Assembly (NCBI GenBank): GCA_029239935.1
Contig: JARBTY010000028.1
Span: 1 to 22,375 of the forward strand
Origin: Clostridia bacterium
GTDB taxonomy: Bacteria; Bacillota_A; Clostridia; Lachnospirales; Cellulosilyticaceae
Direction: 5' to 3'
Length of the DNA stretch: 22,375 bases
Positions within the stretch are counted from its first letter, which is position 1. Each line of letters begins with the position of its first letter. Positions 6,747 to 22,375 of the stretch are shown piece after piece. The position numbers were made by a program, and so were the translations under genes. The notes beneath the pieces were generated by a model. That model ran no database searches and was not told the origin of the DNA. It was given only the letters and a program-made list of their open reading frames with translations.

Positions 6747-7904
6747 CTAATTAATTGGAAGATAATCTTCTGAAACAAGGATTTGTTGACCTTTTGTGCT
6801 TCTTATGTAATTAATATATTTTGCAGTTACACCTGTTGGACTTCCTTTTGTTACTAACAGAAGCGGACGTACATAAGGATATTTTCCTGAAAGTGCATTA
6901 TCCTGTGTTGCCGCAATACCTTCTACACTTACACCATGTACCGTTTTATCTAAATACCCCATTGATACAAATCCAATAGCATTATCACTTTTTGCAACAG
7001 CCTGTAATAAAAGCTGAGTGGAGTTATGTGGTGTTGCATAACTTGGAATAGGCTCTTTTGTAAGAGGAGCCATTGCTAATTCATCAAATGCTGCCAGTGT
7101 GCCTGATCCTGTTTCCCTTGTTTGAATAAAGATTGCAGCATCTTTGCCGCCTATCTCTTTCCAATTTTTAATTTTTCCGCTGAAAACATCTGCTATTTGC
7201 TGTTTAGTTAAAGTTTTTAAAGGATTATTTTTATTCACGATCACTGCAATGGCGTCTCTGCCAATAACAATTTCATTAAGACTTTTTTCTGATTCTTTTA
7301 ATTCTCTTGAAGCACAACCAATATTAAATGTCCCATCACTGGCACCTTTAATACCTGCACCTGAGCCGCCTCCTGCTACACTGATAGATAATCCTGTGTT
7401 TTTCTTATTTAAGATATCTGCTACTTGCTGTGTAATAGGCTGAACAGTTGTTGAGCCTCCCACCTTAATAGTACCTTTCATATCTGAGAAATAAGTGATA
7501 TCTATATTGTTGGCTTTTTTATCAAAATCTATTTTTGCTCCAAAAGCTTCTCCGATAAAACGTAGTGGAACAAATACTCTTCCATTTACTGTTTTAGCCG
7601 GTACATCTAACGTTTTAGCTTGACCATTTACTTTAGCATTTTTAGATCCAATAGTAAGTTCAATCTGTTTATCAGCTGAGTCAATCTTAACGTTATTGCC
7701 ACTTGCAGTAACTATTCCCCCTAGTCCCTGTGCAATAAATTTTACCGGCACAAGAGTTGTACCATTTTCTACTAAAGGCGATACATCAAAGTTGATGGGT
7801 GAACCATCGATTTTAGCTGTCATATGAGTTGCTCCAAATGTCAAAGTTGAAAACATCATAAATGAAGCCATTAAAAGTGTTGATATCTTTGCTAGTTTTT
7901 TCAT
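6747..7904 (-). CDS. pstS: Phosphate-binding protein PstS with N-terminal copper-amine-oxidase-like stalk domain
   Basis: A 385-residue secreted protein. Residues 1-25 are a signal peptide (MKK, hydrophobic core, TFGA) with no lipobox cysteine. Residues about 30-135 hold two copies of the copper-amine-oxidase N-terminal-like fold (LVPVKFIAQGLGG and FVPLRFIGEAFGA are the paired marks). Residues about 138-385 are the phosphate-binding domain with VGGSTTVQPI, GGGSGAGIKG, NNPLKTLTKQQIADVFSGKI and TRETGSGT, characteristic of PstS. It should capture phosphate outside the membrane and pass it to PstC/PstA. Most Gram-positive PstS proteins are lipoproteins; this one may instead be held by its stalk domain. 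AGGGAGG lies ten bases before the ATG, and a PhoP-box-like promoter precedes it. Confidence 0.93.
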   Translation of the reverse strand: MKKLAKISTLLMASFMMFSTLTFGATHMTAKIDGSPINFDVSPLVENGTTLVPVKFIAQGLGGIVTASGNNVKIDSADKQIELTIGSKNAKVNGQAKTLDVPAKTVNGRVFVPLRFIGEAFGAKIDFDKKANNIDITYFSDMKGTIKVGGSTTVQPITQQVADILNKKNTGLSISVAGGGSGAGIKGASDGTFNIGCASRELKESEKSLNEIVIGRDAIAVIVNKNNPLKTLTKQQIADVFSGKIKNWKEIGGKDAAIFIQTRETGSGTLAAFDELAMAPLTKEPIPSYATPHNSTQLLLQAVAKSDNAIGFVSMGYLDKTVHGVSVEGIAATQDNALSGKYPYVRPLLLVTKGSPTGVTAKYINYIRSTKGQQILVSEDYLPIN

Positions 7905-11032: not shown

Positions 11033-12064
11033 TTATAGTGTAAGAAGTTGCTTTATAAATACTTTTAAATCATCTTTACTATCCTCGTTTAATACCCATA
11101 TTGTTTTTAAATTTTGATCTTGGAGTTCAGTATGAATAATAGCCTCAAAATCCAGATGACTCTTTTCGTTTTTCATCTGTGTTTCTATATTTTCTAACCT
11201 CACCGACTGATCTAAAAACTTTTCGATGTACCTCTCACTTATCCTTTTATATTTCTTTTTAAAAATGATAGTTGCCCGGGAAATATAAAAGATTTTATAG
11301 CCATCCTCCAGTTTTTCTCCCATCAAAATTTTTTGTGTTGTTAAAACTGATGCTTTTTTTATATGGGCATAATGCAAATAGTTTATGTGCGCCATCATAT
11401 CCCGATACATAGAAGCTGTCTCAAACCTAAAATCTTCTGCGGCTGCTCTCATTTTACATTCCATTTCATTTAAAAAAATCTGCATCTCTTTCTTATTTGT
11501 AAATATGCCCAAAAGACACCTTTGATTTTCTTCAAACGCTTCTGGTATTATGGCTAATGGTAAAATATGATATGTAAAGATGTAAGTATCTTCCTTTTTA
11601 GATAAGGGATAAATATTTTCAAAGAACTTAATCAAATCCAATAGAATTTGTCTACTTTTATAAGGGCCAAAACAATTTTCTCCCTCTTTTTTATCTACTA
11701 CTGATATGAGTTTGTTCCTGCAGTTTTCTTCTATCCTCAAATATTTATACTTTTGGTCGTTTTTAAATTGAGCATTATACATTGGTTTTATTCTCTTAAT
11801 CAGTTCACACTCCAAAAGCTGTGCCTCCAGATGGGTATCTGTCACAATAATCTCTATATCCTGGATATGACCAACCATCCTCTTGATTTTTTCCCATTTA
11901 TGATCCGCAACGAAATAAGACCTCACCCGTGTCTTTAAGGTCTTACTTTTTCCGATATAGATAATATTACCCTTTGCATCTTTCATTTGGTATACTCCAG
12001 GTTTGGCTGGAATAGCTTTTATCTGCTTCTCTAAATCCTCCGAGATGTTTATCAATGGTATCAC
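11033..12064 (-). CDS. UvrC-like GIY-YIG nuclease lacking the C-terminal nuclease domain
   Basis: About 343 residues. Residues 20-105 form a UvrC-type GIY-YIG domain: KPGVYQMKDAKGNIIYIGKS with Tyr25, Tyr36, Arg46/48 and a Glu in EAQLLECELIKRIKPMYN. Near 200-228 is a UVR-type helical hairpin (AAAEDFRFETASMYRDMMAHI), which in UvrC contacts UvrB. The RNase H-like and helix-hairpin-helix parts of full UvrC (about 600 residues) are absent, and there is no stub of them. The layout recalls E. coli Cho, which makes only the 3' incision, but the ~115-residue tail differs. The frame starts at GTG 12064; TTG 12055 has a better ribosome site (AGGTG six bases before it), so the first three codons are uncertain. 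Confidence 0.82.
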   Translation of the reverse strand: MIPLINISEDLEKQIKAIPAKPGVYQMKDAKGNIIYIGKSKTLKTRVRSYFVADHKWEKIKRMVGHIQDIEIIVTDTHLEAQLLECELIKRIKPMYNAQFKNDQKYKYLRIEENCRNKLISVVDKKEGENCFGPYKSRQILLDLIKFFENIYPLSKKEDTYIFTYHILPLAIIPEAFEENQRCLLGIFTNKKEMQIFLNEMECKMRAAAEDFRFETASMYRDMMAHINYLHYAHIKKASVLTTQKILMGEKLEDGYKIFYISRATIIFKKKYKRISERYIEKFLDQSVRLENIETQMKNEKSHLDFEAIIHTELQDQNLKTIWVLNEDSKDDLKVFIKQLLTL

Positions 12065-13534: not shown

Positions 13535-14023
13535 TCATCCTGTCATTTCAATCAAACTTTTATATAGGCCTGGTACTGAATCTTTAATGACAATGGCTCC
13601 TACAGTTTTTTTGTAAAAGTTAATGGCTTCCTCCGCACCACCAATAATAGCATACCCATAACCGCCTTCTTTCATCGCAAGCAGACACTGAATAAGAAGA
13701 ATTTTTCCTATTCCATAGCCTCTATAACCCTCAGATACACCTGTAGGACCAAAGAAGTTTTTTGCAGTGACCTCATAACATGCAAAACCAATAACTTTTT
13801 TATCTTTCACAGCAATAAAACAAGAAATAGGCTGGTTTGAGAAGGCTCCTTCGCACTCGCTAGCCCAGTTTTCATCAAATGTGTCCTTAACATACGCTAT
13901 AACTCTATGTCTGTCCGGTGCCAAAACCCTCTTGATATAAATCCCCTTATTCTCAAGCTCCTTGATCTCACTGCTTTGTTCTTTTAAATCATATAACTTG
14001 ACCAACATATCTGGCATACCCAT
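13535..14023 (-). CDS. GNAT family N-acetyltransferase
   Basis: About 160 residues with a GNAT fold. Strand beta-4 is seen in KVIGFACYEV, and the acetyl-CoA motif A is GVSEGYRGYGIGKILL (about residues 96-111, R/Q-x-x-G-x-G). The C-terminal AINFYKKTVGA motif B follows. The substrate is not evident. The frame begins at ATG 14023, but a run of five Gs ends right at that codon, so ATG 14017, six bases further on, is the likelier start. It follows another acetyltransferase gene by about 47 bases and is not closely similar to it, so this is not a simple duplication. Confidence 0.87.
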   Translation of the reverse strand: MGMPDMLVKLYDLKEQSSEIKELENKGIYIKRVLAPDRHRVIAYVKDTFDENWASECEGAFSNQPISCFIAVKDKKVIGFACYEVTAKNFFGPTGVSEGYRGYGIGKILLIQCLLAMKEGGYGYAIIGGAEEAINFYKKTVGAIVIKDSVPGLYKSLIEMTG

Positions 14024-14070
14024 CCCCCATTGTTATTCTTATTTTCTAAACATAAACCCCAAAAACCTTT

Positions 14071-14583
14071 TTACCTTATCCAATACCTTTGAACGATTTC
14101 TTCCTCTTCCATTACTTCATTTTCTAAAATGCCGCCATTTTTTATAATCGTTTTAGCAGAGGCTGTATTGTTTTTATCGCACGTTACTAATACTTCGTCA
14201 ATTCCTAACTTTTTCGCTATAGGCAAAGCCATCCCTAACATCAAAGAGGCGTATCCCTTTCCTCTTTCCGATGGACGTATGCCATATCCAATATGTCCGC
14301 CAAACTGAAACAAATATTCATTCAAACAATGTCTGATATTGATCGCTCCAAAAATTCTTTTGTTATTACAAACCAAAAAATAAGTATGGGCAGGCACCAA
14401 ATGCCCAGGACAAGTCTCCTTGTTTTCGATACTATAGGTATAATCAAGCCAAGATTTGTAATCCTTATCTAATAATCTCACAGCATAGGGAATGATGTCC
14501 TCACCATATGCTTCCCATTCAAAGATAAAATCATTATACTGCTCTTCCAATTCCTCTGAAGCTCTTATGAGTTCAAGTATCAA
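14071..14583 (-). CDS. GNAT family N-acetyltransferase
   Basis: About 170 residues. It has a GNAT core with FGAINIRHCLNEYL, then HIGYGIRPSERGKGYASLML, which holds the acetyl-CoA motif A (R-G-K-G-Y-A), and a CDKNNTASAKTIIKNGG motif B. This variant (IRPSERGKGYA with the Asn-rich CDxxNxAS) is common in uncharacterised Firmicutes acetyltransferases; the substrate is unknown. The frame opens with TTG 14592, but the AGGAG at 14593-14597 abuts it; TTG 14583, nine bases after that site, is the plausible start. It is divergent from the ABC exporter leader, about 95 bases from that promoter. Confidence 0.86.
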   Translation of the reverse strand: MILELIRASEELEEQYNDFIFEWEAYGEDIIPYAVRLLDKDYKSWLDYTYSIENKETCPGHLVPAHTYFLVCNNKRIFGAINIRHCLNEYLFQFGGHIGYGIRPSERGKGYASLMLGMALPIAKKLGIDEVLVTCDKNNTASAKTIIKNGGILENEVMEEEEIVQRYWIR

Positions 14584-14677
14584 CTCTACCAACTCCTTTT
14601 CTTAGCTTTATTTACAGACAATTCTATCATTATTTCAAGCCATATTCCAGTAAAAAGCCATAAAATCTTTCTTTTGC

Positions 14678-14707
14678 TTGACAATTGTATGTCCAATTAT
14701 ATATAAT
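14678..14707 (+). promoter_or_regulatory. Strong vegetative promoter of the ABC exporter leader
   Basis: A perfect TTGACA (14678-14683) and a perfect TATAAT (14702-14707) are separated by 18 bases. An overlapping TATATA gives a 16-base option. Transcription would start near 14714, about 33 bases before the leader-peptide ATG and 264 bases before the exporter gene. So strong a promoter ahead of a terminator suggests that control is mainly at read-through. Confidence 0.85.
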
Positions 14708-14746
14708 AGCCTCATGTTGAAATATTCTGAAAGGAGGTAGGAATAA

Positions 14747-14836
14747 ATGTTTAGAGATACTTTATATGTTCATCATACAATCAAATATATCCCTTACAAT
14801 AGCCCTGCCTCTTTAGGTCGCCGGCTATTGTCTTGA
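14747..14836 (+). CDS. Leader peptide of the ABC exporter operon, 29 residues
   Basis: The ATG at 14747 follows AAAGGAGG at near-ideal spacing. The peptide begins MFRDTLYVHHTIKYIPYN and ends LGRRLLS before TGA (14834-14836). It is too short to fold and lies wholly within the exporter mRNA leader. The last codons (CGC CGG CTA TTG) are unusual for an AT-rich genome and coincide with the right arm of an RNA stem, so sequence there seems set by RNA structure. The stop codon overlaps the GACC segment that can pair with the terminator. Residues 6-16 (LYVHHTIKYIP) resemble residues 6-15 of the ErmC leader (IFVISTVHYQ and following P). A regulatory peptide sensing ribosome stalling is the best reading. 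Confidence 0.78.
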   Translation: MFRDTLYVHHTIKYIPYNSPASLGRRLLS

Positions 14837-14839
14837 CCT
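14797..14839 (+). promoter_or_regulatory. Anti-terminator control segments in the exporter leader
   Basis: CAATAGCC (14797-14804) pairs perfectly with GGCTATTG (14823-14830), and the loop holds CCT/AGG (14808-14810 with 14815-14817). Overlapping this, AGGTC (14815-14819) can pair with GACCT (14835-14839), and TGACC (14834-14838) can pair with GGTCA (14879-14883), the left arm of the downstream terminator. These pairings exclude one another, as in attenuators. Which state wins depends on where a ribosome sits on the leader peptide. Confidence 0.6.
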
Positions 14840-14878
14840 TTTTATGTCTATTTGTCACACTTAGAACTTACACTTTAC

Positions 14879-14907
14879 GGTCATGGGGTATTCCTATGAC
14901 CTTTTTT
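14879..14907 (+). terminator. Intrinsic terminator (attenuator) before the ABC exporter genes
   Basis: GGTCATGGG (14879-14887) pairs with CCTATGACC (14893-14901), nine pairs including one G-T, around a five-base loop, followed by T6 (14902-14907). It lies after the leader peptide and 70 bases before the exporter's GTG. Nothing but the leader peptide lies between the promoter and this site, so its clear function is premature termination of the exporter transcript. Confidence 0.85.
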
Positions 14908-14977
14908 GTTGCATAATAATATGTTTTTTATATCCTGTGCGCTTGTAGAGTGTTTTATATTTAAAGGAGGACGTACC

Positions 14978-16714
14978 GTGCTTAGAATACTTAAATATGT
15001 TTGCAAATACCCTCTTATACTGTTGATCAGTTCATTATCTATGCTGATTGTGATAGCACTTGATAATCTTCTGCCCTATATTCAAATGATCTTAATAGAT
15101 GATGGCATCACAAAGGGCAAAACCCAGCTTGTTATGCCCCTCCTTATTGGGATGCTGGTGATTTCTCTTTTGAAGCCACTTCTTATCTTTATCAAAGATT
15201 ATCTTTATAATGTGATTGGGGTCAAAACCCATGAAGATTTAAAAAATGAACTTTTTCAGCATCTTCAATCTTTTGAGTTTTCCTATTTTGATCAGACCAA
15301 CACGGGTGAACTGATGACCCGGTTAGGAGAAGATATAGAAAACATTTGGCAGACTATAGGATTTGGTCTGAGGCTATTCATTGAAAATATCATCTACTTT
15401 ATCATAAGTACCGTAATTTTATTTACTCTTGATTATAGACTCGCAATAGCCTGTTTAGTTATTATGATTCCCATTGGCAGTATTGCCATAATCCTCGAGA
15501 GACGTTTTGGCATGTGTTATGGCAAAATCAGTGACCAAACTGCTCTGATTAATACAACTGCCCAAGAAAACATAGCAGGGGTAAGACTGGTTAAAGCTTT
15601 TGCCCGCGAGAAACATGAGATTCTTAAGTTCTTAAAGCTTAATAAGACCTACTATCATCTCAATATGGAACAAACAGAGGCCGTAGCAACGTACTTTCCA
15701 GTGATTGAATTTTTAAGCAATATTTCACTGGTTGTGATGATTATATTGGGTGGTTATTTTGTCTTGAAGGGTGAAATGACCTTTGGTACACTGATGGCAT
15801 TCAGCGGCTACATATGGAATCTGATATGGCCCATGCGTATGCTTGGATGGCTCATTGATATATTATCTAGAAACTCTGCTTCTGCTAAAAAAATCTTTGC
15901 TATATTAGACCGCCCCTCTAAGGTGCAGTCTCCACCTGATTGTTATGTGCCTGATAGGGTTCATGGGGTCATAACTTTTAAAAATGTCAGCTTTAAATAT
16001 CATGAAGAGAGCGTACTTAATAACATCCATCTAACAATCCCAAGAGGCAGTACTGTCGCTATAATAGGGACCACTGGTTCAGGTAAGACCTCTCTCCTTA
16101 GTTTAATCGGCAGATATTATGATGTTTGTGAAGGTTCGGTATTTGTTGATGATGTTGATGTGACCCGCTTCGACCTACAGGTTTTACGAAGTCATATGTC
16201 TATTGTGATGCAGGATACTTTCTTGTTTTCAGATACCATAGAAAATAATGTGAGGTTTGGTAAAGCTGATGCTTCTTTAGATGAAATAAAAGAGGCCTGC
16301 CACACTGCCTGCTGCCTGGATTTTATTACAAGCTTCGAAAAAGGTTTTTCTACAGAAATAGGGGAAAGGGGCATGGGTTTATCCGGCGGACAAAAACAGA
16401 GGATTTCTATTGCCCGTGCATTGATTAGAAAAGCTCCCATTCTTATTTTAGATGATGCCACCTCTGCCCTTGATACAGAAACAGAATACAGCTTACTGAA
16501 AAATCTCAAAACGCTTCAAAATGACACTACAACCCTCATCATTGCCCATCGCATCTCAGCGGTTAAAAATGCCGATCTCATTATTTTCTTAGAAAATGGT
16601 GAAATAAAGGAACAAGGAACCCACACTGAGCTCATCTCCCAAAAGGGCAGCTATTATGATATTTATGTTGAACAATTTAAGCAATTTGAAACCCTAGAAG
16701 AGGAGGCAATCTGA
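14978..16714 (+). CDS. Heterodimeric ABC multidrug exporter, first half (degenerate ATP site)
   Basis: About 578 residues: a six-helix ABC exporter membrane domain (about 1-310) and an ATPase domain (about 335-578). The ATPase has Walker A GTTGSGKTS (K370), Q-loop VMQDTFLF, signature LSGGQKQR, Walker B LILDDATSALD and H-loop IAHRIS. The catalytic Glu after Walker B is Asp493, as in BmrC/LmrC-type subunits, so its own site hydrolyses ATP poorly. The frame is open from 14906, but that overlaps the terminator; GTG 14978 has AAAGGAGG seven bases upstream and is the true start. It overlaps the next gene by one base (TGATG). Drug export is inferred from the family; the substrate is unknown. Confidence 0.92.
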   Translation: MLRILKYVCKYPLILLISSLSMLIVIALDNLLPYIQMILIDDGITKGKTQLVMPLLIGMLVISLLKPLLIFIKDYLYNVIGVKTHEDLKNELFQHLQSFEFSYFDQTNTGELMTRLGEDIENIWQTIGFGLRLFIENIIYFIISTVILFTLDYRLAIACLVIMIPIGSIAIILERRFGMCYGKISDQTALINTTAQENIAGVRLVKAFAREKHEILKFLKLNKTYYHLNMEQTEAVATYFPVIEFLSNISLVVMIILGGYFVLKGEMTFGTLMAFSGYIWNLIWPMRMLGWLIDILSRNSASAKKIFAILDRPSKVQSPPDCYVPDRVHGVITFKNVSFKYHEESVLNNIHLTIPRGSTVAIIGTTGSGKTSLLSLIGRYYDVCEGSVFVDDVDVTRFDLQVLRSHMSIVMQDTFLFSDTIENNVRFGKADASLDEIKEACHTACCLDFITSFEKGFSTEIGERGMGLSGGQKQRISIARALIRKAPILILDDATSALDTETEYSLLKNLKTLQNDTTTLIIAHRISAVKNADLIIFLENGEIKEQGTHTELISQKGSYYDIYVEQFKQFETLEEEAI

Positions 16715-18501
16715 TGGCTCGTAATACGATTCACAAAGATGAAGACACTACCCAAAGAAGTAAGACCCAGCTTACCCTAAGACTTCTTTCCTATCTTAAA
16801 CCTTATAAGCGTCAAACACTAGTCGCAGTGGCTCTAATGGTTGTTGCTATGATCTGTGGTCTTATCAATCCTTATCTTTTGAAGATAGCTATTGATACGC
16901 ATATCAAACAAAAAAATGTCTCAGGCCTTTTATGGATTGGTGTGATCCTTATTGTCATTAACCTACTAACTTGGCTTCTCTCTAAAATTCGTTTTCAGAT
17001 GGTCGCTAAAATAACCAACACCATGTTAGTAGATATTAGAGCAGAGCTATATACCCATATTCAAAAGCTATCCTTTAGCTTTTTTGACAGTAGGCCCGTA
17101 GGTAAAATATTAGCCCGGGTGATTGGAGATGTTAATGCGCTTCAAAATTTATTCAGCCAAGGCATTCAGTCCCTTGTTCCTGAACTTTTGACGCTTCTAT
17201 TCTCTGCAGTATTTATGTTTTTGCTCAATGTTAAACTTGCTTTAGCATGTGTTTTACTGTTGCCTTTTTTATCGATGGCTATGTTTTATATAGAGCTGTC
17301 TTCTCGTAAACGCTGGGATATACAGCGCAAAAAACGCTCTAACCTCAATGCTTTTACCCATGAGAATTTCTCTGGTATTAAAGTGGTTCAAGCGTTTGCT
17401 AGAAATAGGTCTACCGCTTTAACTTTTAAAGCCATGGTAAGTGAGCTTGTAGCTGCCTTTATACATGCTATTAGAATCAATGAGTTCTTCTGGCCTCTCG
17501 TCGATTTCTCTTGGGGAATCGGTACAGTTGTGGTCTTTTATATAGGTTATGGTCTTATAAAGACTCATGAAATTGAAATAGGGACTCTTTTAGCCTTTTC
17601 CATGTATGTCGGTATGTTTTGGCGCCCGCTCATGAATTTATCTAACTTTTACAGCACGCTCCTCACAAACTTTTCTGCTGCCGACAGAATCTTTGATATT
17701 TTAGATGTCCAGCCAGATTTAACTTCTGATTCAAACGCTCCTATTATGGCGCTCATTCAAGGTGAAGTGACTTTTAAAGACGTCTGCTTTTCATATGATG
17801 AAACAAGTGAAGTGTTAAAAAATGTAAACTTTACAGTGGCACCGGGTGAGAGAATTGCTTTAGTTGGCCCCACCGGTGGGGGTAAGACCACTATTGTCTC
17901 TTTAATCAGCCGCTTTTATGACCCTGACTCTGGGGAAGTTTTAATAGATGGCAAAAATATTAAAGACGTTAATTTAGAGTCCTTTCGCAGTCAGCTTGGC
18001 ATCATGCTGCAAGATACTTTTTTGTTTTCCGGAACCATTATGGAAAATATCCGTTATGGCAAATTAGATGCAACAGATGATGAAGTTATCGCTGCTGCTA
18101 AAGCTGTAGAAGCCCATGGACTTATCCTAAAAATGGAAAAAGGGTATGCTACAGAGGTCAATGAACGGGGATCAAGACTATCATTAGGTCAGAGACAGCT
18201 TATATCTTTTGCAAGAGCATTGCTTGCCAATCCCCGCATTCTTATATTAGATGAAGCTACGTCTAATATAGATACTCAAACGGAACGTTTAGTACAGCAG
18301 GGCATTGAAAAACTATTGTTTAACAGGACTTCTTTTGTTGTAGCCCATAGGTTATCTACTATACGGGATTGCGACAGAATCATGGTTATAGATGATCTTG
18401 GCATCAAAGAAAATGGCACCCACAAGGAGCTTATGGCTCAAAGGGGTACCTATTATGATTTATATATGACTCAATACCGCTTCCTTAAAGAAGGTGCGTA
18501 A
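16714..18501 (+). CDS. Heterodimeric ABC multidrug exporter, second half (catalytic ATP site)
   Basis: A 595-residue partner with a membrane domain (about 25-335) and ATPase domain (about 350-595). It has Walker A GPTGGGKTT (K391), Q-loop MLQDTFLF, Walker B LILDEATSNID with the catalytic Glu514 intact, and H-loop VAHRLS. Its signature is LSLGQRQL rather than LSGGQ. Paired with the first subunit this gives one consensus ATP site (this Walker A/B with the partner's LSGGQ) and one degenerate site, the BmrCD/LmrCD/TM287-288 pattern. AGAGGAGG lies eight bases before ATG, and the start overlaps the upstream stop. Both halves should be made in equal amounts. Leader attenuation likely governs both. 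Confidence 0.92.
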   Translation: MARNTIHKDEDTTQRSKTQLTLRLLSYLKPYKRQTLVAVALMVVAMICGLINPYLLKIAIDTHIKQKNVSGLLWIGVILIVINLLTWLLSKIRFQMVAKITNTMLVDIRAELYTHIQKLSFSFFDSRPVGKILARVIGDVNALQNLFSQGIQSLVPELLTLLFSAVFMFLLNVKLALACVLLLPFLSMAMFYIELSSRKRWDIQRKKRSNLNAFTHENFSGIKVVQAFARNRSTALTFKAMVSELVAAFIHAIRINEFFWPLVDFSWGIGTVVVFYIGYGLIKTHEIEIGTLLAFSMYVGMFWRPLMNLSNFYSTLLTNFSAADRIFDILDVQPDLTSDSNAPIMALIQGEVTFKDVCFSYDETSEVLKNVNFTVAPGERIALVGPTGGGKTTIVSLISRFYDPDSGEVLIDGKNIKDVNLESFRSQLGIMLQDTFLFSGTIMENIRYGKLDATDDEVIAAAKAVEAHGLILKMEKGYATEVNERGSRLSLGQRQLISFARALLANPRILILDEATSNIDTQTERLVQQGIEKLLFNRTSFVVAHRLSTIRDCDRIMVIDDLGIKENGTHKELMAQRGTYYDLYMTQYRFLKEGA

Positions 18502-20736: not shown

Positions 20737-21804
20737 CTATTTTGCTGGTTCTGCTGCAAAATGGCCTCTTGTACTATTGGCAATTTTCACAAGCATCAGC
20801 ATAACAGGCACTTCTACCAGTACCCCAACAACTGTTGCCAGTGCAGCGCCTGACTGAAGCCCAAATAGTGATATGGCCACTGCAACCGCCAGTTCAAAGA
20901 AGTTGCTGGCACCAATCATCCCTGCTGGCGCTGCAATACTGTGAGGCAGTTTCCAAAGCTTTGCCCACATGTAAGCAATACCAAAGATTAAAAATGTCTG
21001 AATAGTAAGTGGTACAGCAATAAGTACAATATGAAGTGGATTATTTAAGATAATATCTCCTTGAAAAGAAAAGATAATAACAAGTGTCAGAAGTAATCCA
21101 ACAATCGTAACATTGTCAAATTTTTTCAAAAACACATTTTGGAAGTAATCCAATCCTTTTTTCTTAATCATCAGTGTTCTTGTGATATACCCAAATGCCA
21201 GTGGAATAACAACAAACAGTACAGTGGATAAAAGCAGTGTTCCCATAGGAACTGCTACATTCCCAACCCCTAATAAAAACGCTACGATAGGTGTAAATGC
21301 TATCAATATAATGAGATCATTCACTGCCACTTGTACAAGGGTATAAGCTGGATCCCCCTTGGTCAGATGGCTCCATACAAATACCATGGCTGTACAAGGT
21401 GCCGCTCCTAGGAGTACCGCTCCTGCTAGATATTCCTTCGCCAAATCTGGCGCAATCAAGCTGCCAAATACCACATAGAAGAAAAATGCTGCTATAGCAT
21501 ACATCGTAAAAGGCTTAATCAGCCAGTTCGTTACACAAGTTACCACAAGTCCTTTAGGTTTCTTGGTGGCACTGACAATACTTGTAAAGTCAATCTTTAA
21601 CATCATCGGATAAATCATCAGCCAAATCAGTATGGCCACCGGTATCGATACATTGTAATACTCAAAGTTACTTAATGTATTCGGAATCCCAGGTAAAAAC
21701 TGCCCTACCAAAATCCCTACCACAATACATCCTGCAACCCATAGGGTTAAATACTTTTCAAAAACGCCAAGACCTTTGCCTTTAGCCTCATTATTTTGTG
21801 CCAT
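20737..21804 (-). CDS. acr3: ACR3-family arsenite efflux permease
   Basis: A 355-residue membrane protein with about ten helices. It has GAAPCTAMVFVWSHLTKGDP, with the family's essential Cys (C137 here) in helix 4, IWLMIYPMMLKIDF in helix 2, and MIGASNFFELAVAVAISLFG with the conserved Glu in helix 9. These are diagnostic of ACR3 rather than ArsB. It exports arsenite (and possibly antimonite) by the proton gradient. GGAGGAGG precedes the ATG, 37 bases after the upstream reductase-rhodanese gene, so the two are co-transcribed. An ArsR repressor and ArsC would lie, if present, beyond the right edge. Databases also name this protein ArsB. Confidence 0.94.
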   Translation of the reverse strand: MAQNNEAKGKGLGVFEKYLTLWVAGCIVVGILVGQFLPGIPNTLSNFEYYNVSIPVAILIWLMIYPMMLKIDFTSIVSATKKPKGLVVTCVTNWLIKPFTMYAIAAFFFYVVFGSLIAPDLAKEYLAGAVLLGAAPCTAMVFVWSHLTKGDPAYTLVQVAVNDLIILIAFTPIVAFLLGVGNVAVPMGTLLLSTVLFVVIPLAFGYITRTLMIKKKGLDYFQNVFLKKFDNVTIVGLLLTLVIIFSFQGDIILNNPLHIVLIAVPLTIQTFLIFGIAYMWAKLWKLPHSIAAPAGMIGASNFFELAVAVAISLFGLQSGAALATVVGVLVEVPVMLMLVKIANSTRGHFAAEPAK

Positions 21805-21841
21805 TTCAAATCCTCCTCCATCTTCTTTTTGATGCTATCTT

Positions 21842-22375
21842 TTACTCTTTATGACCTTCTTTTGTTGCATGATAAAATTGGTGCCCGCCCGAAAGATTGT
21901 AAACTTCTTTAAACCCTTCATTAATCAATATGTTCTGCGCTGCATTACCCGTTACCCCCTTGTTGCAGTAGGTAACAGTTGGTATCTCTTTATCCAGCTT
22001 CTTTAGCTCTTCTCTCAGCTTATTGTGAGGCATACTGACTGCTGTTTCCACATGAGATGCTTCATATTGTTTCATGACTCTTGCATCAACAATCTGGAGC
22101 TTTTTGCCTTCTTTAAGGAGCTCTTTGGTCTCTTTGGCTGTTATAATAGGTCTATGCTGATTTAAAGCATTGTCCAGTATCATCCCCGTATAATGAACGG
22201 GATCCTTAGTCGTTGAAAAAGGGGGTGCATAGGCAAGGTCTAAATGGAAAAGTTCATCTACTTTTGCCCCATAGGTAATAAGCGCTGCAAAGACATCAAT
22301 ACGCTTATCCACCCCTTCATACCCTATGATTTGTACACCCAATAGCTTTTCTGTATTTTTATCTGCAATGGCTTT
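21842..22375 (-). CDS. FAD-dependent disulfide reductase with C-terminal rhodanese domain (5' part outside window)
   Basis: The visible 177 residues are the C-terminal end. The first ~75 match the dimerisation domain of CoA-disulfide/NADH-oxidase-type flavoproteins: LLGVQIIGYEGVDKRIDVFA, and HLDLAYAPPFSTTKDPVHY. Residues after ~90 are a rhodanese domain: LQIVDARVMKQYEASHVETA and the active loop TYCNKGVTGN with a Cys. The frame runs through the right edge; an apparent start at 22342 is an internal Leu codon. Such fusions reduce disulfides, polysulfides or CoA persulfides. Linked to acr3, it may serve in arsenic or thiol homeostasis. The operon order (this gene, then acr3) is seen directly; the flavin and NAD domains are inferred from the family. 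Confidence 0.9.
   Translation of the reverse strand, partial: KAIADKNTEKLLGVQIIGYEGVDKRIDVFAALITYGAKVDELFHLDLAYAPPFSTTKDPVHYTGMILDNALNQHRPIITAKETKELLKEGKKLQIVDARVMKQYEASHVETAVSMPHNKLREELKKLDKEIPTVTYCNKGVTGNAAQNILINEGFKEVYNLSGGHQFYHATKEGHKE

What the first reader, a model, noticed from the sequence alone, without database searches (positions are those of the whole stretch)
14678..14980. Ribosome-mediated attenuator controlling a heterodimeric ABC exporter
Seen: a consensus promoter, a 29-codon leader peptide behind AAAGGAGG, an internal stem (14797-14804 with 14823-14830), then a nine-pair terminator with T6 (14879-14907), then the exporter's own site and GTG (14978). The segments AGGTC, GACCT, GGTCA and ATGACC can pair in alternative ways. 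The leader stop codon (14834-14836) lies in TGACC, the segment that can pair with the terminator's left arm. A ribosome finishing the peptide would cover TGACC and allow termination; one stalled near codons 8-10 would leave the stem at 14797-14830 free to form and TGACC free to block the terminator. Established: B. subtilis bmrB-bmrCD is controlled this way by translation inhibitors. Inference: the exporter is induced by ribosome-targeting drugs.
Basis: partly seen in the sequence, partly recalled or inferred. Interest (0 to 1): 0.82.

Follow-up and report, generated by a model that had tools for sequence, protein, structure and literature searches.

The report
Ribosome-sensing RNA switch for drug pump
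In front of a two-part membrane export pump, a bacterial messenger RNA carries a short decoy gene whose ribosome-landing site can pair with a patch further inside it, so that a ribosome stuck on the decoy should free a strand that lets the pump genes be transcribed; the pairing is conserved by matching mutations in many related bacteria.

Summary

Missed part 1: the leader's Shine-Dalgarno site (14731-14741) pairs over 11 bp with an anti-SD inside the leader ORF (14804-14814). This anti-antiterminator is conserved with compensatory changes, also in Bacillales. The matching pairing is locus-specific in 70 loci (mean helix score 16.6 against 11.9 for permuted partners).

Folding: a ribosome on the leader SD switches the window RNA from T1 (0.97) to antiterminator (1.00). 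A ribosome only at codon 10 favours the antiterminator partly while strands emerge (0.38-0.74), then reverts to T1 (0.97), unless a second ribosome queues on the SD. The peptide drifts freely, so early arrest is sensed, not a peptide sequence. How terminator 2 is passed is unsettled; drug induction is inferred. Known kind (bmrCD, vmlR, cplR, rli53/59); a new conserved variant matching no Rfam family at its cut-off.

The parts
14678..14707 (+). sigma-A type promoter TTGACA-N18-TATAAT
   Evidence: 12/12 consensus; of 65 leaders tested, 51 have a >=10/12 site within 90 nt upstream of the SD, against 7% of shuffles
14731..14741 (+). leader Shine-Dalgarno AAGGAGGTAGG; strand a of the switch
   Evidence: pairs 11 bp with 14804-14814 (p 0.004); covaries across relatives
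14747..14836 (+). leader ORF, 29 codons, peptide not conserved
   Evidence: versus L001 13 codons differ, 12 non-synonymous, no indel
14797..14804 (+). antiterminator strand b (CAATAGCC)
   Evidence: pairs 8 bp with 14823-14830; homologous strand-to-terminator pairing is locus-specific in 70 loci (for the window and L001 that call scored T2, because my finder missed their T1)
14804..14814 (+). anti-SD (CCTGCCTCTTT), anti-antiterminator strand inside the leader ORF
14815..14843 (+). first terminator T1: AGGTC ... GACCT running into T5; overlaps the leader stop codon; weak in this lineage
   Evidence: -8.4 kcal/mol; forms 0.97 when the SD is free, 0 when the SD is masked
14823..14830 (+). strand c (GGCTATTG) in T1, partner of strand b
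14879..14907 (+). second terminator T2 with T6
   Evidence: -13.3 kcal/mol
14963..14970 (+). exporter ribosome-binding site AAAGGAGG
14978..16714 (+). ABC exporter half-transporter 1, 578 aa, GTG start; Walker B has Asp where the catalytic Glu is usual (ILILDDATSAL)
16714..18501 (+). ABC exporter half-transporter 2, 595 aa; canonical Walker B, non-canonical signature LSLGQ

Best explanation
A three-strand, ribosome-operated transcription attenuator. Strand a is the leader's own SD, strand b lies in the leader ORF (antiterminator segment overlapping an anti-SD), strand c is the 5' arm and loop of the first terminator. With no ribosome on the SD, a pairs with b and the terminators form (OFF). 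A ribosome that translates through covers b, and at the stop codon, 10-34 nt past the anti-SD, leaves b to re-pair with the SD (OFF). A ribosome arrested at or near the start, or queued behind an early stall, covers the SD but not b; b then captures c as it emerges, T1 cannot form, and RNA polymerase can proceed towards the exporter (ON). Shown by comparative sequence: a:b and b:c pairing. Shown by folding only: the switch on SD masking. Inferred: that drugs which arrest ribosomes early are the signal, that the exporter removes such drugs, and how T2 is passed.
For: a:b: 67 of 96 upstream regions (450 nt) carry an accepted SD:anti-SD helix (five of the 72 passing the filter were set aside by eye); looking up to 900 nt upstream gave clear ones in 6 of the other 29 (L097, L119, L135, L152, L176, L179), 73 of 96 in all. 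Leader chosen by SD alone, 44 of 78 are significant at p<=0.05. 63 distinct rows are 92.6% paired against 82.8% in shuffles and 38-56% when slid; 19 extra pair types against 13.1; 0 of 500 shuffles reach any of the three measures. Examples: GGAGGTAGG:CCTATCTCT, GGTGTGTATT:AATACGCACC, GGAGGTTT:AAACCTC, GGAGGTAAGA:TCTTACCTCT. b:c: mean helix score 16.6 against 11.9 (sd 0.41) with permuted partners, n=70; the same strand against T2 gives no signal (-4.82 against -4.95 kcal/mol, n=50), an internal control for kinship. Masking the SD raises b:c in 43 of 66 loci and lowers it in 0; masking the early ORF instead: 13 up, 5 down; masking after the anti-SD: 3 up, 5 down of 46. Window. RNA not peptide: 12 of 13 codon differences to L001 non-synonymous, and the anti-SD lies in at least two frames. 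Geometry: start to anti-SD 48-135 nt; anti-SD to stop 10-34 nt. Three Bacillales loci not used to derive the model (3 exporter-positive of 199 genomes) all have the a:b helix; one of them (L222) was folded and shows b:c on SD masking.
Against: No expression data. T2 wins at equilibrium in every complete window state tested (0.96-1.00). Across relatives T1 drops by more than 0.2 on SD masking in only 11 of 66 and T2 in 8 of 48, so the switch must be kinetic. A codon-10 or codon-5 mask that leaves the SD bare also favours b:c transiently (0.38-0.82), so SD occupancy is not the only way to tip it; and with nothing bound b:c still reaches 0.42 at end 14890. a:b and b:c overlap by only 1-3 bases in most loci, and in the MTLF-type clade they abut. 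23 of 96 upstream regions show no clear helix even with up to 900 nt searched, including the MKRILKYVTK clade, which keeps the exporter; L004 and L007 (54% and 50% identity) show no such leader either. The helix register was chosen as the best helix, which inflates raw pairing counts, and shuffles do not remove kinship. In the window T1 is short and its b:c pair is identical in L001, so covariation there rests on relatives.
Confidence: 0.8

Rival explanations
1. One reading: a ribosome stalled at defined codons 8-10 of the leader is the trigger, for example through a specific nascent peptide; SD pairing is incidental.
For: The stem 14797-14830 and TGACC pairing exist. A codon-10 mask alone favours the stem partly while strands emerge (0.38-0.74), and a codon-10 stall plus a queued ribosome switches fully.
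Against: A codon-10 mask alone returns to T1 0.97 once T1 is complete. The peptide is not conserved (12 of 13 codon changes non-synonymous). SD:anti-SD covaries.
Confidence: 0.1
2. Direct ligand-binding riboswitch or protein-bound attenuator; the short ORF is incidental.
For: Some ABC-transporter leaders have been proposed as possible riboswitches or protein targets (PMC2965389, section 9 read).
Against: No Rfam family reaches its cut-off; no conserved aptamer-like core was apparent, conservation is concentrated in SD, anti-SD and terminators; the ORF start and the anti-SD-to-stop spacing are kept.
Confidence: 0.05
3. Plain translational self-limitation of a small functional peptide, with ordinary terminators; the anti-SD only damps leader translation.
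For: SD:anti-SD pairing would also repress initiation on the leader (inference).
Against: Does not explain locus-specific strand-to-T1 pairing; the peptide is not conserved.
Confidence: 0.05

Closest known systems
Bacillus subtilis bmrB-bmrCD ribosome-mediated attenuator (PMC4191407, abstract and passages read)
   Same: ABC exporter (heterodimeric BmrC/BmrD); translated leader ORF; terminator, antiterminator and predicted anti-antiterminator; induced there by lincomycin, chloramphenicol and erythromycin, and dependent on bmrB translation.
   Different: There the terminator lies within a longer leader ORF with a GTG start, and the role of the anti-antiterminator was left unclear; the term Shine-Dalgarno does not occur in the text. 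Here the anti-antiterminator is SD:anti-SD, terminators are tandem, and subunit 2 scores closer to TM_0288 than to BmrD.
B. subtilis vmlR leader (PMC9226507, abstract and passages read)
   Same: A ribosome arrested on a uORF prevents an anti-antiterminator, so an antiterminator blocks the terminator.
   Different: uORF of 3 codons; its SD lies in a single-stranded region before the anti-antiterminator hairpin; controls an ABCF protein, with an extra hairpin over the main gene's SD.
C. difficile cplR and L. monocytogenes lmo0919 (rli53) leaders (PMC10201436 and PMC8079631, passages read)
   Same: uORF and anti-SD elements are named together in a figure legend (figure not seen); in cplR a 5' hairpin sequesters the uORF; induced by ribosome arrest. 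The SD/anti-SD principle may therefore already exist in this group.
   Different: 3-codon uORFs, ABCF genes (lmo0919 is called an ABC transporter in PMC8079631). Here 25-54 codons, anti-SD 48-135 nt into the ORF, tandem terminators, exporter operon.
Streptomyces are5sc and tiaA leaders (PMC12421871, passages read)
   Same: uORF ribosome-binding sites overlap antiterminator hairpins; ribosomes stall at the uORF start codon and transcription is induced.
   Different: ABCF genes; short uORFs (3 and 9 residues); no anti-SD inside a long leader ORF in the passages read.
L. monocytogenes rli59-lmo1652 (PMC8079631, passage read)
   Same: Small ORF and antibiotic-responsive terminator before an ABC transporter; responds to lincomycin, erythromycin, chloramphenicol.
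   Different: Mechanism not worked out in the passage; orthology of lmo1652 to this exporter was not tested.
S. pneumoniae patAB attenuator (PMC4319486, passages read)
   Same: Predicted terminator, antiterminator and anti-antiterminator before an ABC exporter.
   Different: No leader ORF is described in the passages read; predicted transcription start 67 bp before patA.

Membership tests
ribosome-mediated transcription attenuator | promoter, then a translatable leader ORF with SD, then an intrinsic terminator before the gene | tested here: met
   conserved in relatives
ribosome-mediated transcription attenuator | mutually exclusive terminator and antiterminator | tested here: met
   b:c versus T1, window fold and locus-specific pairing in 70 loci; for T2 not shown
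ribosome-mediated transcription attenuator | ribosome position decides the fold | tested here: inconclusive
   in-silico masking only
ribosome-mediated transcription attenuator | leader translation required, induction by ribosome inhibitors or starvation | not testable with these tools
   needs reporter assays and term-seq
bmrB-bmrCD system | exporter orthologous to BmrC/BmrD | tested here: inconclusive
   half-transporter 2 scores 402 bits to TM_0288 and 342 bits to YheH/BmrD; BmrC is not among the 60 best shown for half-transporter 1; no tree made
bmrB-bmrCD system | main terminator inside the leader ORF | tested here: not met
   main terminator 14879 starts 42 nt past the stop codon; only weak T1 overlaps the stop codon
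vmlR/cplR/rli53 type (3-codon uORF before an ABCF gene) | three-codon uORF and ABCF product | tested here: not met
   29 codons (25-54 in 67 leaders); product has ABC_membrane plus ABC_tran
known Rfam RNA family | match at or above gathering score | tested here: not met
   (best 21 bits to ar15, cut-off 40)
heterodimeric ABC exporter with one degenerate ATP site | paired half-transporters with complementary non-canonical motifs | tested here: met
   Walker B Asp in subunit 1, LSLGQ signature in subunit 2; meaning of the motifs recalled, not from a call

The most novel reading that the evidence does not exclude
A widespread, peptide-independent sensor of ribosome occupancy at a start site: the leader's SD is itself the sensing strand, so any agent that parks a ribosome at or near initiation turns the exporter on, whereas agents that stop ribosomes from loading should turn it off. 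In lineages with tandem terminators, antitermination passes on: the 3' arm released from T1 captures the 5' arm of T2 (a domino).
Probability: 0.3. Interest if true: 0.68.

Novelty: new variant of a known kind. Interest (0 to 1): 0.55.

Why it matters
It gives a concrete, covariation-supported wiring for a ribosome-operated switch on a multidrug-type exporter in Clostridia and Bacilli, with no Rfam match. It makes opposite predictions for drugs that freeze initiated ribosomes and drugs that stop loading, and it suggests why such leader peptides can drift freely while their SD does not. It also gives a search signature (GGAGGTAGG, 50-80 bases, CCTRYCTC) that hit once per genome in 28 of 206 genomes with no hit of the reversed control; 26 of the 28 fetched loci encode the exporter at 51-64% identity, one a 34% match over 122 residues, and one is a contig end.

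Tried and rejected
Leader-peptide-specific stalling as the conserved signal: rejected because of non-synonymous drift and frame changes. A broad regulon: the consensus pattern gave one hit per genome in 28 of 206 family genomes, 27 of them with the exporter or part of it; variants of the pattern were not searched. Class-wide, 13 of 341 genomes matched, while the reversed control gave 13 matches; five of the 13 are of the leader type (G003, G039, G082, G187, G529), the others I judged chance from their sequence. Viral contigs: 52 loci matched a near-identical pattern; by my ORF check none has a leader of the right geometry and none of the DNA held encodes the exporter at 1e-20. Plasmids: no exporter match at 1e-120. 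Rfam: nothing at gathering score.

Domino antitermination: T1 3' arm to T2 5' arm is locus-specific (-10.48 against -8.34 kcal/mol permuted, sd 0.31, n=50), and SD masking raises it in 20 of 48 loci and lowers it in none, but the opposite arms pair as well (23 stronger, 19 weaker, 1 equal of 43, p 0.66; seven of the 50 loci dropped as misassigned or unclear), so duplicated or co-drifting terminators explain it equally; kept only as a hypothesis. An equilibrium switch is rejected in favour of a kinetic one: T1 falls on SD masking in only 11 of 66. In some searches L001 was scored on its T2, because my finder missed its T1; it was folded by hand.

Rows dropped before counts: L004, L007 and L088-L090 (distant exporters), L005 (no upstream DNA), L081-L084, L086, L087 (repeats of L001-L004, L006, L008) and L101 (short upstream) before the 96; L131, L135, L150, L162, L166 by eye after (L131 may be real; L135 turned out to have a clear leader further upstream).
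Full report
What is there. Two further features matter more. The leader SD, AAGGAGGTAGG 14731-14741, is complementary over 11 bp to CCTGCCTCTTT 14804-14814 inside the ORF; this helix is in the minimum-energy fold and has p about 0.004 against shuffled ORF sequence. And AGGTC 14815 ... GACCT 14839, running into T5, is a short hairpin terminator (T1, -8.4 kcal/mol) whose loop side carries GGCTATTG, the partner of CAATAGCC.

The genes. Both downstream proteins are ABCB-type half-transporters (ABC_membrane plus ABC_tran). Subunit 1 has Asp at the catalytic Walker B position and subunit 2 a non-canonical LSLGQ signature, the pattern (recalled) of a heterodimer with one degenerate ATP site. Subunit 2 matches TM_0288 (402 bits) better than YheH/BmrD (342 bits). 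What it exports is not known.

Relatives. The nearest genome (L001, uncultured Clostridia, 84% identity) has the same layout. In the genome family of L003, 98 of 206 genomes have the exporter at E<=1e-150. I analysed 96 upstream regions of 450 nt or less: the window, 6 loci, 29 of the 30 loci, and 60 fetched; five of the 98 hits were not fetched. One search lists 75 of 96 with a candidate SD:anti-SD helix; a stricter filter kept 72; I set five of those aside by eye, leaving 67 of 96. On checking, a look up to 900 nt upstream gave clear SD:anti-SD leaders in 6 of the remaining 29 (L097, L119, L135, L152, L176, L179), so 73 of 96 in all; these six are not in the statistics below. The 23 others include one clade that keeps the exporter but has another conserved upstream ORF.

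Test of the SD:anti-SD helix. With the leader chosen by SD strength alone, 44 of 78 loci have a helix at p<=0.05 against dinucleotide-shuffled ORFs, where about 4 are expected (18 of 96 had no such ORF). In 63 distinct rows 92.6% of cells pair, against 82.8% when 3' letters are dealt anew and 38-56% when the register is slid; there are 19 further pair types against 13.1, and 7 columns with changes on both sides against 2.9; none of 500 shuffles reached any of the three. For columns 4-8, outside most of the ribosome-binding core, 0, 5 and 10 of 500 shuffles reach the three values. Shuffling does not remove kinship, and the register was chosen as the best helix; clade-level replacements such as GGAGGTTT:AAACCTC, GGTGTGTATT:AATACGCACC and GGAGGTAAGA:TCTTACCTCT are the most telling part.

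Test of the antiterminator. In 70 of the 72 loci (two had no terminator by my finder; three of the 70 were later set aside) the 12 bases before the anti-SD plus its first 5 pair with the first detected terminator's 5' arm and loop with mean score 16.6, against 11.9 (sd 0.41, maximum 13.1 of 2000) for permuted partners. For the window and L001 that terminator was T2. The same strand shows no such preference for the second terminator (-4.82 against -4.95 kcal/mol, n=50; first terminator -10.31 against -7.37), which is a control for shared ancestry. Examples: ATGGCAGCCC:GGGCTGCTGT, CAATAGTCC:GGACTATTG, TATTAATAATCCT:AGGGTTATTAATA.

Switching. For the window, folding of growing transcripts gives SD:anti-SD 0.98 and T1 0.97 with nothing bound (end 14843); with a ribosome-sized mask on the SD it gives b:c 1.00 and T1 0.00. 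A mask only at codon 10 gives partial b:c before T1 is complete (0.38 at end 14830, 0.74 at 14836, against 0.06 and 0.22 free) and then T1 0.97; a codon-5 mask is similar (0.82, then T1 0.95); a codon-3 mask, or a codon-10 stall with a second ribosome on the SD, switches fully. A ribosome at the stop codon covers T1 but T2 forms. Across 66 relatives SD masking raises b:c by more than 0.2 in 43 and lowers it in none; a mask of the early ORF raises 13 and lowers 5, a mask after the anti-SD raises 3 and lowers 5 of 46. T1 falls by more than 0.2 in only 11 of 66 and T2 in 8 of 48 at equilibrium. In four loci (L002, L008, L125, L137) I took the second listed hairpin as T1 by judgement.

What is sensed. 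Between the window and L001 the leader ORF is 71/90 identical without indels, yet 12 of 13 differing codons are non-synonymous, and the anti-SD lies in at least two reading frames among 67 leaders (45/20/2; a few of these are register artefacts of variant SDs). So the RNA strands, the start, and the spacing look selected, not the peptide. The anti-SD begins 48-135 nt after the start (median 66), beyond a ribosome at the start codon, and ends 10-34 nt before the stop (median 18), where a terminating ribosome would sit against it. This suits a general sensor of ribosome arrest near initiation. That drugs are the signal is inference from bmrCD, vmlR and cplR (papers read in part).

Second terminator. 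Fifty loci have at least two hairpins after the anti-SD. T1 3' arms pair with T2 5' arms of the same locus better than with others, and in the window TGACC is predicted to hold the T2 left arm (0.96 with the SD masked, 0.42 without) until the right arm is made. But the reverse arms pair equally well, and T2 wins at equilibrium, so a domino is possible, not shown.

Distribution. The consensus pattern hits 28 of 206 genomes of that family, once each, with no hit of the reversed control; 26 of the 28 loci encode the exporter at 51-64% identity, L204 a 34% match over 122 residues, and L201 ends before any gene. Class-wide, hits (13 of 341 genomes) equal the control count and five are of the leader type. 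In the order of L001, 4 of 146 genomes have the exporter at E<=1e-180; besides L001, L194 and L196 have the SD and leader pattern, L195 does not show it. Three of 199 Bacillales-order genomes have the exporter and all three have the SD:anti-SD helix and two hairpins with T runs, seen in the printed sequence. L004 and L007, more distant exporters, show no such leader.

Literature. Searches and the passages read did not show this element, but most subscription papers are not held. A figure legend in PMC10201436 names anti-SD elements in cplR and lmo0919 leaders, and in Streptomyces are5sc and tiaA the uORF ribosome-binding sites overlap antiterminator hairpins (PMC12421871), so the principle of an SD-based switch is probably not new. 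Other papers seen in passages only: PMC6310831 (hflXr), PMC8632094, PMC8079631, PMC4319486; PMC2965389 section 9 read whole.

Noticed in passing
L148, L150, L153, L157 (upstream of the exporter): A clade that keeps the exporter lacks a clear SD:anti-SD leader and has another upstream ORF with a conserved stretch (LLSRYRRKPLYL), perhaps a different leader or small protein.
   Followed up: no
6747-7904 minus: A PBP-like (PstS-like by context) protein carries an N-terminal Cu_amine_oxidN1 domain before PBP_like_2.
   Followed up: no
11033-12064 minus: A 343-aa protein with a GIY-YIG domain and no other Pfam match at 1e-5; UvrC-like in its N-terminal part by recall.
   Followed up: no
13535-14592 minus: Two GNAT acetyltransferase genes run divergently from the exporter operon.
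   Followed up: no
L167, L169, L170, L173-L175, L177, L178: A sister group uses a different SD extension (mostly GGAGGTTT:AAACCTC) and a single detected terminator AACACAGCTCTGAAT(A/G)GCTGTGTT; there the antiterminator (CTGTG:CACAG) abuts rather than overlaps the anti-SD.
   Followed up: partly
20737-22342 minus: SBF-family transporter (ACR3-like by recall) next to a rhodanese-domain protein.
   Followed up: no
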